A DNA stretch of 64,000 nucleotides from Acidobacteriota bacterium (GTDB lineage Bacteria; Acidobacteriota; Vicinamibacteria; Marinacidobacterales; Marinacidobacteraceae): contig JAJDUD010000024.1 in the NCBI GenBank assembly GCA_022826825.1, positions 62,001 through 126,000 on the forward strand, read 5' to 3'. Made by a program: the position numbers and the translations under genes. Positions 45,384-52,109 of this stretch are shown one piece after another. Under the pieces are notes generated by a model, which did no database searches, was not told where the DNA came from, and was given only the letters and a program-made list of their open reading frames with translations. Position 1 is the stretch's first letter. Each line of letters begins with the position of its first letter.

Positions 45384-45797
45384 TCACGGCACGGGCAGGA
45401 ATCCCTGCTCCTCGAAGTCCCCGTCGTACGTGAAGGCATACCGGATCCGGCGGTCGCGCATCACCTCGAAGGAGAGCCAGTCCACGAGAGAGACATGGCG
45501 CCGGCCGGCGGCGAACATGGCCGCCGTCGCGCGGCCGTGGAGTTTCTCGTTGATCCAGACGACCTCAGCGACCGGCAGCAACCCGTCGTGGAGTTCCCGG
45601 ACCGCCTGCATGCCCAGTCGTCGGGCGATGAGCGCGGTGGATTCCACGACGACGGCGTGATGGGTAACGAGAACCGTTCGTACCTGGCGAGCGCCGGAAA
45701 GCAGGCGGTCCCAGGTTTGTCTGGCGTCGTCGTGGAACCGCTGCTCGGCGTCGAGGAGCGCGTAGAAGGCCGATGTATCGACGAAGACGGGGGTCAT
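45384..45797 (-). CDS. PIN-domain VapC-type toxin
   Basis: MTPVFVDTSAFYALLDAEQRFHDDA...VVVESTALIARRLG...HVSLVDWLSFEVMRDRRIRYAFTYDGDF. Confidence 0.9.
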   Translation of the reverse strand: MTPVFVDTSAFYALLDAEQRFHDDARQTWDRLLSGARQVRTVLVTHHAVVVESTALIARRLGMQAVRELHDGLLPVAEVVWINEKLHGRATAAMFAAGRRHVSLVDWLSFEVMRDRRIRYAFTYDGDFEEQGFLPVP

Positions 45798-46273
45798 CGC
45801 TTCGGCAACCGCCACCTCGCCATCTCCTCTTCCAGGATCTCCCCGTATGCCTCGTCGTGTTTCTCGGCGAGGTCGCTGCGCCCGGAGCGGAACGCCCCGA
45901 CGGGCCGCCTGGCGCGTTCGATGAGTTCGTCCAGCGCGCTGCCTCCGCGGTACGCGGTGAGCGCCTGGTGGAGCAGACCGTCCGGCGACACGCCGAGCTC
46001 TCCCGCAAGCCGGTGCAGCCGCTCGGTCGCGTCTTCGGTGAGATTTCGGGGGGTCAGATTTCCGGTTGCGTCCGAACCGTAGGGCCGGGCTCCCTCCTCG
46101 ACAGCGGTAGCGCCCCGTTCCGCGGACGCCTCCGCTTGATGCGGAGCGACCGGCAACAGGCGCGCGACGGGACGGCCCCACTTGGTGATGACGACGGGAG
46201 TGCGGCTGGCGGCAACCTCGTCGAGGATCCGGAGGCAGGTGTCCTTGAATTTGCCGGCGGAAATGGAACGCAT
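45794..46273 (-). CDS. Phd/YefM-type antitoxin with C-terminal extension
   Basis: MRSISAGKFKDTCLRILDEVAASRTPVVITKWGRPVARLLP; overlaps the toxin start by 4 nt. Confidence 0.85.
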   Translation of the reverse strand: MRSISAGKFKDTCLRILDEVAASRTPVVITKWGRPVARLLPVAPHQAEASAERGATAVEEGARPYGSDATGNLTPRNLTEDATERLHRLAGELGVSPDGLLHQALTAYRGGSALDELIERARRPVGAFRSGRSDLAEKHDEAYGEILEEEMARWRLPKR

Positions 46274-46387
46274 GCGGAAAAATATAGCCATAGCCACATT
46301 TCATCGCAAATCCCGCTGCCGTCCGGGGACGACCGGTCCACGTGCGCCCCTGGTTCCGTAGAATCGGCGCCCCCGAGAGGAACGTCC

Positions 46388-48982
46388 ATGAACCTGCGTC
46401 TCAGCTTCGCCCTCCTCCTGCTCGCGGCGACCCCGCTCTTCGCCCAGCCCCAGCGCTGGCCGCCGCCACCCATCATCCAGGGAGTCGCCGAGGCCTATCC
46501 GCCCGCGCGTCACGGCGGAAACTACATGCACAACTACTACTTCCCGCCCGCGCCCAGCAGCACGCCCTGGGCGCCGGCCTGGTCCCCGGACGGGAAGAGC
46601 ATCGCGGTGGCGATGTCCGGCTCGATCTGGCGCGTGGACCCCGAGACCGGGAGCGCCGACGAACTGACCTCGGGTCCCGGCTATCACTCGCTGCCGGCCT
46701 GGTCTCCGGACGGACGCTTCATCGTCTTCACGGTGGACCGGAACGGCCAGAACATCGGTCTCGCGATCACGGAGGTGGCCACCGGAGAAACGCGCACGCT
46801 CCTGAGCGACGAGTTCCTCCATACCGACCCGGCGTTCTCGCCGGACGGGACCCGGCTGGCCTACGTGTCCACGAAGCCCTCGGGCTACTTCAACGTCTAC
46901 GTCCGGGAGTTTGCGGCTGGCGAACTCGGATCCGAGGAGATCGCGCTCACCCGGGACGAGAACTACGGCAAGGAGCGGCTCTACTTCGGTTCCTGGGACA
47001 TGCACATCACGCCGGCCTGGATGCCGGATTCCCGGGAGCTGCTGATGGTCTCGAACCACGAGGTGCCGCTCGGCTCCGGGAACGTGGTCCGCACCCCGAT
47101 GGCCGTGGACGGGTTCGAGGAGGGAGTCACGGTGCTCGCGGAGCAGTCGCTCTACCGGACCCGTCCGGACGTCTCGATCGACGGGAAGCGGTTCATCTAT
47201 TCCTCGACGGCCGGGGCCGCCGATCAGTTCTCGAACCTCTACGTGCAGCCGACCGACGGCGGCTCACCCTACAAGTTGACCTTCTTCCAGCACGACGCCT
47301 TCCACCCGCGCTGGTCGCCGGACGGCGAGTGGATCGCCTACATCGACAACGCGGGGGGGCTGCCGCAGCTCGCGCTCCTCGAGACCTACGGCGGGAAGCG
47401 GCGGACCGTCGAGATCACCCGGCGGAACTGGAGCCGGCCGATGGGCGTGCTCTCGGTGCGCACCGTGGACGATGCGACCGGCGAGGAGGTGGCCTCGCGG
47501 ATCCATCTCACCGCCGCCGACGGCCGCTTCTACGCTCCGCCGGACGCCTACGCCCGGATCGGCGGGGCCGGGGAGCACTCCTTCCACCAGGCGGGGAGCT
47601 TCCGGATGGAGCTCCCCGTCGGATCGCTCGAGATCGAGGCCGTCCGGGGATTCGAGTACGAGCCGGTCAGCACGAATGTGGACATTGCCGCGGGCGACGT
47701 GACCGAGCTGACGCTGCGGCTGCCCCGGATCACCGACATGGCCGCCAAGGGGTGGTGGAGCGGCTCCACCCACATCCACATGAACTACGCCGGCAACCTC
47801 CACAACACCCTCGAGAACCTGATGTTCATGTCCGACGCCGAGGACCAGGACGTGGTCCTCGAGCAGATCGCCAACAAGGACAACCGCATCCTCGACTACC
47901 AGCACTTCGTTCCCGGCGGCGGCGCGCACCCGCTCTCCACCGAAGACATGGTGCTGGTCGTGGGGCAGGAGTACCGGCCGCCGTTCTACGGCCACGTCTT
48001 CTACTTCGGCCTGGAGGAGCACCTGATCTCCCCCTACACGACCGGCTACGAGGGCACCGGGATCGAGAGCCTCTACCCGTCCAACACCGACATGTTCCGG
48101 AAGGCGAAGGCCCAGGGTGCGACGGTCGGCTACGTGCACGCCTACTTCGGGGAGAACGATCCGCTGTTCGCCCCTGACGGGAGCCCGGGGAGTCTCGGGG
48201 GCGCGAAGGGCTACATGGTGGATGCGGCGCTCGGGATGACGGACGCGGTCGAGTGGTCCTCGGCGTCGCGCGCGGGTTTCTTCCCCTGGTACGCCACCCT
48301 GAACAACGGTCTGCGGGTCACCGCGGTGGGCGGGGAGGACTCGATCAGCAACATGCAGCGGTCCAAGCTGGTGGGATCGGTCCGCACCTACGTCCACACC
48401 GGGGAACGAGGCCTGGATCTCGACGCCTTCCTCGAAGGGATCCGGAAGGGGCGCGCGTTCGTGAGCTGCGGGCCGCTGCTCGACTTTCGGGTGAACGGAC
48501 GCATTCCCGGGGACGACGTCCAGCTTCCGGACGCGGGGGGCGAGGTGGAGTGGAGCGCCTGGGTCCGCTCCCCGACGCCGCTCGAACGCGCCTGGGTGGT
48601 CTCCGGAGGTGAGGATGTGGCGGACATCGCACTGTCCGAGGACCGGCGATCCGCGACGGCGACGGGCCGGCTCGCGATGGATCGGAGCGGTTGGCTGATC
48701 CTGCGGGCGGAGGGCTCACCGGACGAAGCGCGCCCGCTGGACTGCGGCTACGCCCAGGCGTTCACAAACCCGGTCTGGGTCAGGGCAGGGGACGAGCCGG
48801 TCCGGAGCGCCGCCGCCGCCGAGTACTCGATCCGCTGGATCGACCGGCTGCGCGAGATGGCCGAAGCCTGGGAGTACTGGCGTTCCGAGGCCGAACAGGC
48901 CCACGTCTACGCCCAGTTCGACGAGGCCCGGGCGGTCTACGAGGGCTTTCTCGCCGAGGCCCGCGCGATGGGGCGGGAGTGA
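46388..48982 (+). CDS. exported CehA/McbA-like PHP metallohydrolase with N-terminal TolB/PD40 propeller
   Basis: Signal peptide; WSPDGKSIAVAMSG / WSPDGRFIVFTV repeats; KGWWSGSTHIHMNYAGNLHNTLENLMFMSDAEDQDVV. Confidence 0.88.
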   Translation: MNLRLSFALLLLAATPLFAQPQRWPPPPIIQGVAEAYPPARHGGNYMHNYYFPPAPSSTPWAPAWSPDGKSIAVAMSGSIWRVDPETGSADELTSGPGYHSLPAWSPDGRFIVFTVDRNGQNIGLAITEVATGETRTLLSDEFLHTDPAFSPDGTRLAYVSTKPSGYFNVYVREFAAGELGSEEIALTRDENYGKERLYFGSWDMHITPAWMPDSRELLMVSNHEVPLGSGNVVRTPMAVDGFEEGVTVLAEQSLYRTRPDVSIDGKRFIYSSTAGAADQFSNLYVQPTDGGSPYKLTFFQHDAFHPRWSPDGEWIAYIDNAGGLPQLALLETYGGKRRTVEITRRNWSRPMGVLSVRTVDDATGEEVASRIHLTAADGRFYAPPDAYARIGGAGEHSFHQAGSFRMELPVGSLEIEAVRGFEYEPVSTNVDIAAGDVTELTLRLPRITDMAAKGWWSGSTHIHMNYAGNLHNTLENLMFMSDAEDQDVVLEQIANKDNRILDYQHFVPGGGAHPLSTEDMVLVVGQEYRPPFYGHVFYFGLEEHLISPYTTGYEGTGIESLYPSNTDMFRKAKAQGATVGYVHAYFGENDPLFAPDGSPGSLGGAKGYMVDAALGMTDAVEWSSASRAGFFPWYATLNNGLRVTAVGGEDSISNMQRSKLVGSVRTYVHTGERGLDLDAFLEGIRKGRAFVSCGPLLDFRVNGRIPGDDVQLPDAGGEVEWSAWVRSPTPLERAWVVSGGEDVADIALSEDRRSATATGRLAMDRSGWLILRAEGSPDEARPLDCGYAQAFTNPVWVRAGDEPVRSAAAAEYSIRWIDRLREMAEAWEYWRSEAEQAHVYAQFDEARAVYEGFLAEARAMGRE

Positions 48983-49026: not shown

Positions 49027-49368
49027 ATGAGCCTGATGGGGCGCGCGCTGGGGACGCGGGCGCCGTTCGTGGCCGCGGGCCAGATCGACGAGGTGCTGAG
49101 CGACGAGCAGGTCCTGCTGCTCGATGTACGCACGGCCCTCGAACTGGCCGAATCCGGGACCATCCCGGGAGCGGTCCATGTCCATCTGGGAGAGTTGGCG
49201 GATCGGCTGGACGAACTGCCCCGGGACCGTCCGATCCTCACCACCTGAATGGTGGGACCACGGGCCGCGCGGGCCGCGGCCATCCTGGAGACCGCCGGTT
49301 TCGAGGTTGTGGGTTTTTCCGGCCTCAAGCAATATACGGGCGCGCGGGAGTACCGCCCGCTCGACTGA
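49027..49368 (+). CDS. rhodanese-domain protein with in-frame UGA (predicted selenocysteine 74) at the catalytic Cys
   Basis: MSLMGRALGTRAPFVAAGQIDEVLSDEQVLLLDVRTALELAESGTIPGAVHVHLGELADRLDELPRDRPILTT-[TGA 49246-49248]-MVGPRAARAAAILETAGFEVVGFSGLKQYTGAREYRPLD*. The TGA sits where the rhodanese CxxGxR Cys belongs; frame open to 49368. Confidence 0.88.
49263..49281 (+). promoter_or_regulatory. candidate bacterial SECIS stem-loop 1
   Basis: GGCCGCG-cgggc-CGCGGCC: perfect 7-bp stem, 5-nt loop with G at position 2; loop begins 21 nt after the UGA. Confidence 0.6.
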
Positions 49369-49397
49369 TTTCCCATGGTTCCCATAGGAGGTCCACG

Positions 49398-49829
49398 ATG
49401 AAGAGGACTCTTTTCTTCGCCGGGCCCGCCCTCGCCGCGCTGGCGCTCGGTTGCGGCGGTGGCGGCGAACCGGCCGCCGAGGAAGCGGCTGCCCCTGAAG
49501 CGGCGGCGCCCGAGCCGGCTCCCCGCGTCGAGGCGGCGGACATTGACGGCGCGCTCGCGAACGGCGCCGTGCTGCTCGACGTCCGCACCGACGAGGAACT
49601 CGCCGAGCACGGCACGATCGAGGGCTTCGTCCACATCCCGATCGACGAACTGGAGGCGAGGATGGCTGAACTCCCGGCTGGAGTTCCCGTCCTCACCGCT
49701 TGACAGGGTGGCGGAAGAGCCGCGCGTGCCGCGGAGCTGCTACAAGCGAACGGATACGAAGTCGTCGGGTTCTGTGGTCTGAGGGACTACGAGGGCGAGC
49801 GGGTGTACCCGGGCGCCGCTGACGAGTAA
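49398..49829 (+). CDS. rhodanese-domain lipoprotein with in-frame UGA (predicted selenocysteine 102) at the catalytic Cys
   Basis: MKRTLFFAGPALAALALGCGGGGEP...(lipobox LALGC)...VLLDVRTDEELAEHGTIEGFVHIPIDELEARMAELPAGVPVLTA-[TGA 49701-49703]-QGGGRAARAAELLQANGYEVVGFCGLRDYEGERVYPGAADE*. Confidence 0.88.
49720..49734 (+). promoter_or_regulatory. candidate bacterial SECIS stem-loop 2
   Basis: CCGCG-cgtgc-CGCGG; loop begins 21 nt after the UGA, same spacing and near-same loop as copy 1. Confidence 0.5.
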
Positions 49830-49839
49830 GCCCGAAGCG

Positions 49840-51135
49840 CTACAAACCCGCGGTCCGGAACCCCGCCATGATGTCGCGGCGGTCCGGACTGAAGAAGTTG
49901 CGATAGCGGCCGGTCAGCATCCGGCTGCGCGTCGCCCAGGCGCCGCCGCGCAGGACCTTGGTCTGCTGGAACTGGCTCTCCGAGTATTCCCGGTACGCAT
50001 CGGGGCGGAATTCGGGAAACGGCTCGAACGTGTCCGCTGTCCACTCCCAGACGTTGCCGAGCATCTGCCGGCAACCGAAGGCGCTGTCGCCGTCCGGCAG
50101 CGCCCCGACCTCGACGCAGCCGAGCGTCCACCCGTCCAGATTCGCGTGCCGGGATTCGGGCAGCGCCTCGCCCCAGGGATAGGTCCGTTTCCGGGACGCC
50201 AGGCGGTTTCCGTCGGGTTCGCCGAGCGCCGCCGTCTCCCATTCGGCCTCGGTGGGAAGCCGCCGTCCCGCCCAGGCGCACCAGGCGTTCGCCTCGAACC
50301 AGTTGACGTGGATGACCGGCTCGTTCAGCGGCAGCGGCGCGGTCTCGTCGAAGCATCGCAACCGGAACGCGTCCGCTCCGTCGGAGAGCCAGTAGACGGG
50401 CCGGGGTGCCCCGGCCCGTTCCCGCCAGGCCCAGCCCGCGTCGCTCCAGAACTCCCGCTTCCGGTAACCCCCGGCATTGACGAATTCGGCGAACTCCGCG
50501 TTCGTGACCGGCGCCTTCGCGATCGAAAACGGCCGCACGTCCACCGGATGCGCCCACTTCTCGTTGTCGTAGCAAAACGGCGCGTCCCGCTCCGCTCCCA
50601 GGCGGAAGGTCCCGCCCGGAACCCGGGCGTCGCCGGGACAACCGCCGGACGGTTCCCGGGAAAGACTCCGGCCCAGCCGCGGCGCCGGGTAGCCGAGAGT
50701 CTGCCGGGAATAGACGTATGCCTCGGTGTGCATGTCCTCGTGGAACGTGGCGAACTGGTACATGAAGCTGTCCCGCTCGCTCGCCGTGCCCGGACCGAGC
50801 CGTTCCAGGCAGCGGTCCTTGACGGTTTCGGCGTAGCGGATCGTTTCCTCCATGCCGAGCAGCGGGAGGTCCCAGCGCGTGTCCTGGAGGACGGCCGCCG
50901 AGTCGTACAGTTCGTCGGCTTGCCGCAGGATCGGGGCGTGGCCGTAGAGGTCGCGCAGAATGAAGTTCTCGTAGAACCACGCAACGTGCCCGATCTCCCA
51001 CCGCAACGGATTGACGATGGGCATCTGGGGCCCCATCAACTGGTTGTCGTCGAGGCCGACGGTCAGTGCGATGCTGCGCCGGTGAGCGTCTTCCATGATG
51101 GCGGCGAGATGATCGGCCGGAACACGCTGGGTCAT
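49840..51135 (-). CDS. senA: EgtB/SenA-type nonheme iron C-S/C-Se bond-forming synthase (DinB_2 + FGE-sulfatase), probable selenoneine synthase
   Basis: NPLRWEIGHVAWFYENFIL; FHEDMHTEAY (HX3HXE iron motif); HVNWFEANAWCAWAGRRLPTEAEWE; GNVWEWTADTFEPFPEFRPD. SenA rather than EgtB is inferred largely from the adjacent SenB-like gene. Confidence 0.75.
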   Translation of the reverse strand: MTQRVPADHLAAIMEDAHRRSIALTVGLDDNQLMGPQMPIVNPLRWEIGHVAWFYENFILRDLYGHAPILRQADELYDSAAVLQDTRWDLPLLGMEETIRYAETVKDRCLERLGPGTASERDSFMYQFATFHEDMHTEAYVYSRQTLGYPAPRLGRSLSREPSGGCPGDARVPGGTFRLGAERDAPFCYDNEKWAHPVDVRPFSIAKAPVTNAEFAEFVNAGGYRKREFWSDAGWAWRERAGAPRPVYWLSDGADAFRLRCFDETAPLPLNEPVIHVNWFEANAWCAWAGRRLPTEAEWETAALGEPDGNRLASRKRTYPWGEALPESRHANLDGWTLGCVEVGALPDGDSAFGCRQMLGNVWEWTADTFEPFPEFRPDAYREYSESQFQQTKVLRGGAWATRSRMLTGRYRNFFSPDRRDIMAGFRTAGL

Positions 51136-51155
51136 GTTGGTGGCGGGGTTCGCCC

Positions 51156-52109
51156 GTGCGAATCATTCTAGTAACCCCCGCGGGCGCGAGGTCCCGCTTC
51201 GGCAACCGGATCACCGCGCGGCGCTGGGCGGCGGTGCTGCGGTCGCTCGGCCACCGGGTGGCCATCCAGACCGCGTGGAACGGCGCGTCCGCGGAGGTGC
51301 TGATCGCCCTCCACGCGTGGCGGAGCGCCGCTTCGATCCGCGGCTTCCGGGCGCGTTTTCCGACCCGTCCGCTGATCGTGGCGCTGACCGGGACGGACAT
51401 CTACGGGTTCCTGCTCAGCGAGCCGGAGACCACCCGGAGGTCGCTCGAATGCGCCGACGTGCTGGTCGGGTTGCACGACCTGGCCGGGGAAGCGGTGCCG
51501 CCGGAATTCCGCGCCCGGGTTCGGGTGGTGCACCAGTCGGTTCCAGCCAGGAGCGTGACGCGCTGTCCCGTGAAACGGTCCTTCGACGTGTGCGTCGTGG
51601 GGCACCTCCGCCGGGAGAAGGATCCGCTGCGGGCGGCCGCGGCGGCGCGGGAGATGCCGGCGGACTCGCGCCTGCGGATTCTCCACGCCGGTGGGGCGCG
51701 GGATCCCGAGTGGGCCGAAGCGGCGCGCCACGAAATGGCTCGCAACCCGCGTTACCGGTGGCTGGGCGAAGTGCCGCCGTGGCGCGTGCGGCGGCTCTAC
51801 GAACGGACGCACGCCATGGTGATCCCGTCGCTGGCGGAGGGCGGCGCCAACGTCGTGTCGGAAGCGGTGGTCGCCGGGCTGCCGGTGATCGCGTCCCGGA
51901 TCCCCGGAAACGTCGGCCTGCTCGGTTCGGACCACCCGGCCTACTTCCCGCCCGGAGATACGGGGGCGCTCCGGGCTCTCCTGCGGCGGGGGGAGAGCGA
52001 TCCCGAATTCCTCGCGGAGCTCACCCGGCACGGCGCCCGGCGGGCGCCGCTCTTCGCTCCCGAGCGTGAGCGCGAGGGCTGGCGCCGGTTACTCGATGAG
52101 CTTCGGTGA
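51156..52109 (+). CDS. senB: SenB-type selenosugar synthase-like glycosyltransferase
   Basis: MRIILVTPAGARSRFGNRITARRWAAVLRSLGHRV...VLIALHAWRSAASI..F....PTRPLIVALTGTDIY...VIPSLAEGGANVVSEAVVAGLPVIASRIPGNVGLLGSDHPAYFPPGDT; resembles the family formerly called TIGR04348. Confidence 0.8.
   Translation: MRIILVTPAGARSRFGNRITARRWAAVLRSLGHRVAIQTAWNGASAEVLIALHAWRSAASIRGFRARFPTRPLIVALTGTDIYGFLLSEPETTRRSLECADVLVGLHDLAGEAVPPEFRARVRVVHQSVPARSVTRCPVKRSFDVCVVGHLRREKDPLRAAAAAREMPADSRLRILHAGGARDPEWAEAARHEMARNPRYRWLGEVPPWRVRRLYERTHAMVIPSLAEGGANVVSEAVVAGLPVIASRIPGNVGLLGSDHPAYFPPGDTGALRALLRRGESDPEFLAELTRHGARRAPLFAPEREREGWRRLLDELR

What the first reader, a model, noticed from the sequence alone, without database searches (positions are those of the whole stretch)
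49249..49734. Matched bSECIS-like hairpins at identical spacing downstream of both UGA codons
Copy 1: GGCCGCG-CGGGC-CGCGGCC. Copy 2: CCGCG-CGTGC-CGCGG. In both, the apical loop begins 21 nt after the UGA and has G as its second nucleotide, fitting the general bacterial SECIS description (short stem-loop, G in the first loop positions, about 16-37 nt from UGA). The region also encodes the conserved RAARAA, so protein-level conservation could partly explain the similarity.
Basis: partly seen in the sequence, partly recalled or inferred. Interest (0 to 1): 0.75.

Follow-up and report, generated by a model that had tools for sequence, protein, structure and literature searches.

The report
Selenocysteine signals in twin rhodanese genes
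Two neighbouring genes of an acidobacterium very probably read a UGA "stop" as selenocysteine, and the RNA hairpins after each UGA are selenocysteine-insertion signals of the known bacterial kind, which relatives have kept by matched silent mutations.

Summary
In this genome alone they are not persuasive. The encoded AARAA peptide forces the loop G and two middle base pairs, and codon-shuffled versions score as well in 7% (copy 1) and 45% (copy 2) of trials. The matched spacing reflects common descent: the genes are paralogues. Comparison settles it. 53 acidobacterial relatives carry TGA at the rhodanese catalytic cysteine. Across 30 distinct sequences of the same register, wobble-wobble pairs 21-27 and 18-30 always pair, through about 4 and 6 changes on the tree; these silent sites change less than the gene's other silent sites; the loop arginine codon is CGU or CGG in 36 of 36. 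Two sub-clades carry the hairpin in another register. The genome has tRNA-Sec, SelA, SelB and SelD. Best reading: two tandem selenocysteine rhodaneses with real bSECIS elements, a new member of a known kind (UxxG rhodanese selenoproteins are listed). Selenoneine genes senA and senB lie next door in this genus. Sec insertion and enzyme function remain inferred.

The parts
49027..49368 (+). Copy 1: selenocysteine rhodanese (113 aa, Sec74), no obvious signal peptide; ends at TGA 49366-49368
   Evidence: Read-through translation; Pfam Rhodanese PF00581 46.6 bits, cut-off 22.2; copy-1 orthologue with TGA in all 8 relatives of the same family that carry copy 2
49246..49248 (+). Sec codon UGA of copy 1, at the rhodanese catalytic Cys position (U-M-V-G-P-R)
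   Evidence: Alignment A1/A5: TGA column invariant
49263..49281 (+). bSECIS hairpin of copy 1: 7-bp stem, loop CGGGC at 49270-49274
49398..49829 (+). Copy 2: selenocysteine rhodanese (143 aa, Sec102) with a probable lipoprotein signal peptide (LALGC) and conserved Cys126; ends TAA
   Evidence: 43-sequence alignment; AlphaFold2 model pLDDT 74.8, rhodanese fold
49701..49703 (+). Sec codon UGA of copy 2 (U-Q-G-G-G-R)
49720..49734 (+). bSECIS upper hairpin of copy 2: 5-bp stem, loop CGTGC at 49725-49729
49708..49743 (+). Possible lower stem of the copy 2 bSECIS: 49708-49714 with 49737-49743, internal loop between
   Evidence: RNAfold MFE fold in window and f1 relatives; not tested for covariation
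49840..51135 (-). Neighbour: selenoneine synthase SenA, convergent with copy 2
   Evidence: NCBIfam NF041186 482 bits, cut-off 420; adjacency kept in 7 of 7 genus genomes that carry the pair
51156..52109 (+). Neighbour: selenosugar synthase SenB
   Evidence: NCBIfam TIGR04348 411 bits, cut-off 300

Best explanation
Both hairpins are bacterial SECIS elements. In each mRNA the UGA that replaces the catalytic cysteine codon of a rhodanese is decoded as selenocysteine, because SelB carrying Sec-tRNA-Sec binds the stem-loop whose apical G-U/G (nt 23-24 after UGA) lies just beyond a 21-nt spacer. The stem is written inside the AARAA codons: amino-acid identity supplies the loop G and pairs 19-29 and 20-28; codon choice supplies pairs 21-27 and 18-30 and the U/G after the loop G. 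The products are two paralogous Sec rhodaneses, one probably cytosolic and one probably a lipoprotein, presumably acting in persulfide or selenium/sulfur-transfer chemistry. Shown here: sequence, machinery genes, family-wide UGA, wobble-pair covariation and silent-site conservation. Inferred: SelB binding, Sec insertion, localisation and enzymatic role.
For: (1) Own genome has tRNA-Sec with anticodon UCA (69.7 bits, cut-off 47), SelB (323 bits with its C-terminal part, cut-off 242; 639 aa ORF), SelA (485, cut-off 268) and SelD (246, cut-off 125). (2) Homologues: all 45 matches in 35 of 193 class genomes at E<=1e-13 contain in-frame TGA, none lacks it; in the phylum sample the 12 best matches each have one TGA and ordinary rhodaneses follow at E=5.7e-15 and weaker. 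(3) 30 distinct sequences of the window's register: pair 21-27 is G-C 23, C-G 7; pair 18-30 is C-G 21, U-A 5, U-G 3, G-C 1; none unpaired; covariation score 0.268 against 0.092 in shuffles (0 of 500) and at most 0.076 in slid controls. (4) On a protein tree built without the SECIS-coded residues, 21-27 changes state 4 times and 18-30 6 times, always ending paired. (5) Silent sites of codons 6-10 change 5,4,2,4,5 times against 6-14 at the 12 other four-fold sites (exact rank test p=0.0003). (6) Loop Arg codon is CGU 34, CGG 2 of 36 where CGU is 11% of CGN codons in the genome sample. (7) Codon-matched control sites: inner pair 11 of 43, CG[U/G] 15 of 43. (8) Two sub-clades keep a stem in other registers.
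Against: The two window copies alone are close to the synonymous-codon null. Independent changes are few: 3-4 independent contrasts per pair, so the sign test alone cannot reach p<0.05. No expression, Se labelling or SelB-binding data exist. SelA is common in this class (148 of 193 genomes), so its presence is weak evidence; 34 of 35 carriers have it, p=0.0007 without phylogenetic correction, and one carrier (G430, 85% complete) lacks a match.
Confidence: 0.93

Rival explanations
1. The hairpin is a by-product of protein conservation: Ala GCN and Arg CGN codons are reverse complements, so any G+C-rich AARAA gives a hairpin with a G in the loop; UGA may still be Sec, but the signal lies elsewhere or is not needed.
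For: Pairs 19-29 and 20-28 and G23 are forced by codons; 80-89% of synonymous redraws hold a 4-bp G-loop hairpin.
Against: Wobble-wobble pairs 21-27 and 18-30 are 100% paired and covary, these silent sites are the slowest of the gene, CGU/CGG in 36 of 36, and codon-matched sites have the inner pair only 26% of the time.
Confidence: 0.05
2. The UGAs are true stops or mutations and the genes are truncated or decaying rhodaneses.
For: Standard ORF calling ends both genes at the UGA.
Against: The same UGA at the catalytic residue in 53 homologues, with the downstream half (R-x-x-R-A-A, FCGL) conserved after it; all Sec genes present.
Confidence: 0.01
3. UGA is read as another amino acid (reassigned code) rather than by SECIS-directed Sec insertion.
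For: None found.
Against: Copy 1 itself ends at a UGA (49366-49368) and several relatives end at UGA; UGA sits at the catalytic Cys position; tRNA-Sec, SelA, SelB and SelD are present.
Confidence: 0.01

Closest known systems
Bacterial SECIS (bSECIS) consensus, as described in PMC13188914 Fig. 2A
   Same: Loop 3-9 nt, upper stem 4-16 bp, G in first two loop positions followed by G or U, 16-37 nt from UGA; met by both window copies
   Different: Here much of the element is also dictated by the encoded AARAA peptide, and the register differs between sub-clades of one protein family
Rhodanese-like selenoproteins forms 2 and 4 (PF00581, UxxG; examples MBM9537886.1 and MCY3690685.1 in PMC13188914)
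   Same: Rhodanese domain with Sec in a UxxG motif (both copies are UxxGxR)
   Different: Not compared by sequence (accessions not held); tandem duplication, lipoprotein form and selenoneine neighbourhood are not mentioned in the passages found
NCBIfam NF041203 rhodanese-related (seleno)protein (rhodanese form 3, CxU)
   Same: Rhodanese-like, may be a selenoprotein
   Different: Scores 25.6 and 15.5 against a cut-off of 115, and the CxU motif is absent
Rhodanese domain of CoA-disulfide/persulfide reductases (CoADR-RHD, PDB 3icr, 3nt6)
   Same: Best solved structural and sequence match of the domain
   Different: Those use Cys and are fused to a flavin reductase; here a stand-alone Sec domain

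Membership tests
bSECIS | In-frame UGA upstream, spacing UGA to loop 16-37 nt | tested here: met
   21 nt in both copies; 17-22 nt across the family's registers
bSECIS | Apical loop of 3-9 nt with G in first two positions, usually followed by G or U | tested here: met
   CGGGC and CGUGC; family loops CG[U/G]GC, G[U/G]GCN, G[G/U]N
bSECIS | Upper stem 4-16 bp, MFE at or below -7.5 kcal/mol | tested here: met
   7 and 5 bp; nt 11-36 fold at -14.6 and -10.5 kcal/mol
bSECIS | Stem conserved beyond amino-acid constraint | tested here: met
bSECIS | Binds SelB and directs Sec insertion | not testable with these tools
   Needs binding or reporter assay; SelB gene present
Selenoprotein | Host encodes SelA, SelB, SelD and tRNA-Sec | tested here: met
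Rhodanese-like selenoprotein, UxxG form | PF00581 with Sec at catalytic Cys in UxxG | tested here: met
Rhodanese-like selenoprotein, UxxG form | Sequence clusters with the published form 2 or form 4 example | not tested
   Example accessions could not be retrieved
NCBIfam NF041203 | Score at or above the curated cut-off of 115 bits | tested here: not met
   25.6 and 15.5 bits

The most novel reading that the evidence does not exclude
Within one orthologous selenoprotein family the bSECIS has moved register at least twice. Clades A and B keep the apical G-U/G fixed at nt 23-24 but use different stem arms, while clade C places G[G/U] at nt 18-19, so the element can be re-founded inside a nearly fixed peptide by codon choice. 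In the window's genus the duplicated Sec rhodaneses may additionally serve the neighbouring selenoneine pathway as selenium or persulfide carriers.
Probability: 0.3. Interest if true: 0.6.

Novelty: new member of a known kind. Interest (0 to 1): 0.45.

Why it matters
It is a clean natural case where protein-coding and RNA-signal constraints can be separated base by base. Three of the seven stem pairs fall on wobble-wobble positions and two of those covary without ever breaking, while the loop G is amino-acid-forced. That makes SECIS requirements directly testable with purely synonymous mutants. It also shows how weak the generic bSECIS pattern is in G+C-rich genomes (80-89% of codon-shuffled controls hold such a hairpin), a warning for single-genome calls. 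The genes add a tandem, partly lipoprotein Sec-rhodanese pair beside selenoneine genes in Acidobacteriota.

Tried and rejected
A single-genome folding test was tried and found uninformative (MFE of the 45 nt not lower than synonymous controls, P 0.45 and 0.87). A search for AARAA control sites in ordinary ORFs of the fetched loci gave only 2. A codon-pattern control gave 43 sites; of the loci fetched for it none was recognised as a genuine Cys rhodanese, so it controls for codon composition only; one Cys relative with RAARAA (L093) has none of the three wobble pairs. The idea that Sec rhodanese and SenA form a family-wide functional pair was rejected: adjacency is seen only in the window's genus, and SenA is over its cut-off in 17 of 193 class genomes. 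The idea that the two matched hairpins are independent evidence was rejected: the copies are sister clades from a duplication within the family. The group B stem is invariant, so covariation cannot test it.

Full report
What is there. The window carries two adjacent rhodanese genes, 49027-49368 and 49398-49829, each interrupted by one in-frame TGA exactly where the catalytic cysteine of rhodanese belongs.

Frame geometry. Counting from the first base after UGA, the stem pairs satisfy i+j=48. Positions 15, 18, 21, 24, 27, 30 and 33 are third codon positions, so pairs 21-27, 18-30 and 15-33 are wobble with wobble. Pairs 19-29 and 20-28 are fixed by Ala codons GCN, 17-31 by Ala plus a G-starting codon, and loop G23 by Arg CGN. 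Any G+C-rich gene for AARAA therefore has part of the hairpin and the loop G for free. With synonymous codons redrawn from the window's usage, a hairpin as good as the observed one arises in 7.0% (copy 1) and 44.5% (copy 2) of draws, both in this register in 1.8%, and 80-89% of draws hold some 4-bp G-loop hairpin. The two-copy argument is thus weak, and weaker still because the copies are paralogues: on the protein tree they form two sister clades inside one family (97/89 support).

Relatives. Searching the class gave 45 matches at E<=1e-13 in 35 of 193 genomes, every one with TGA inside the match. In a phylum-wide sample the 12 best hits have one TGA each, and rhodaneses without it follow at E=5.7e-15 and weaker. 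Named records are Acidobacteriota, including Luteitalea and Bryobacteraceae. I extracted 53 distinct TGA genes. The tandem pair is present in all members of the window's family that have the gene.

RNA evidence. Group A (36 genes, 30 distinct sequences after UGA) shares the window's register. Pair 21-27 is G-C in 23 and C-G in 7; pair 18-30 is C-G, U-A, U-G or G-C; neither is ever broken, and the covariation score is 0.268 against 0.092 in shuffles (0 of 500) and at most 0.076 when the partner is slid. Pair 15-33 is broken in 13 of 30, so the basal pair is not conserved. On a tree built without the SECIS-coded residues, 21-27 switches 4 times with both sides changing and 18-30 changes 6 times, always paired; independent contrasts never go the other way but are too few for a sign test. 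The third positions of codons 6-10 change 5, 4, 2, 4 and 5 times, against 6 to 14 at the 12 other four-fold sites of the same gene (exact rank test p=0.0003). The loop arginine codon is CGU in 34 and CGG in 2 of 36, matching the published G[G/U] rule (PMC13188914), whereas CGU is 11% and CGG plus CGU 45% of CGN codons in this genome sample. Codon-matched sites elsewhere in the phylum have the inner pair in 11 of 43 and CG[U/G] in 15 of 43.

Other registers. Group B (12 sequences, family f7 and one f6) encodes ASRAA or SSRAA, which breaks 21-27. There nt 18-21 pair with 30-33 and 22 with 28, leaving G23-U/G24 in the loop; the paired wobble positions 18, 21, 30 and 33 are invariant while wobble 27 in the loop takes all four bases. 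Group C (5 sequences, f63/f53) uses 11-17 with 21-27 and a loop GGN or GUC at nt 18-20. These fit the same consensus at spacings of 17-22 nt. The group B and C structures rest on fit and conservation, not on covariation.

Machinery. The same genome encodes tRNA-Sec (UCA), SelA, SelB and SelD, all over curated cut-offs.

Protein. Both are rhodanese domains. The model of copy 2 (pLDDT 74.8, signal region poor) matches CoADR-RHD and persulfide reductase rhodanese domains best (sequence). Copy 2 starts with a probable lipoprotein signal (inference from LALGC). A second cysteine (FCGL, Cys126 at the end of the next strand) is conserved in most of the family but is Ser in most copy-1 genes, so a Sec-Cys pair is possible in copy 2 and unlikely in copy 1; this is inference.

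Neighbourhood. SenA and SenB, the selenoneine enzymes, lie directly downstream, and this order is kept in all seven genomes of the genus that carry the pair, but not in the other genus of the family that could be checked with enough flank, nor in other families. A link to selenoneine is therefore a genus-level suggestion, not a family property.

Known or new. Rhodanese selenoproteins with a UxxG motif are already listed (forms 2 and 4, PMC13188914), and bSECIS elements are known, so this is a new member of a known kind. What stands out is the separability of RNA and protein constraints, the register shifts, and the tandem arrangement.

Noticed in passing
window 49840-52109: Selenoneine biosynthesis genes senA (-) and senB (+) lie directly beside the two selenoprotein genes; the arrangement is conserved in seven genomes of the genus.
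   Followed up: yes
window 49366-49368: Copy 1 terminates at an ordinary UGA stop 40 codons after its Sec UGA, so the same mRNA should contain one recoded and one terminating UGA.
   Followed up: no
window 49716-49718: Arg codon 5 after UGA in copy 2 is AGA, a rare codon here (1.6% of Arg codons), yet invariant in all family f1 copy-2 relatives; it lies in the internal loop between lower and upper stem.
   Followed up: partly
G320 (same genus, 89% complete): This genome lacks both the Sec-rhodanese pair and a SenA over cut-off, consistent with joint loss of the region or an assembly gap.
   Followed up: no
window 45773-48982: Upstream gene encodes a TolB-like propeller joined to a CehA/McbA metallohydrolase domain; conserved upstream of the pair in the genus.
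   Followed up: partly
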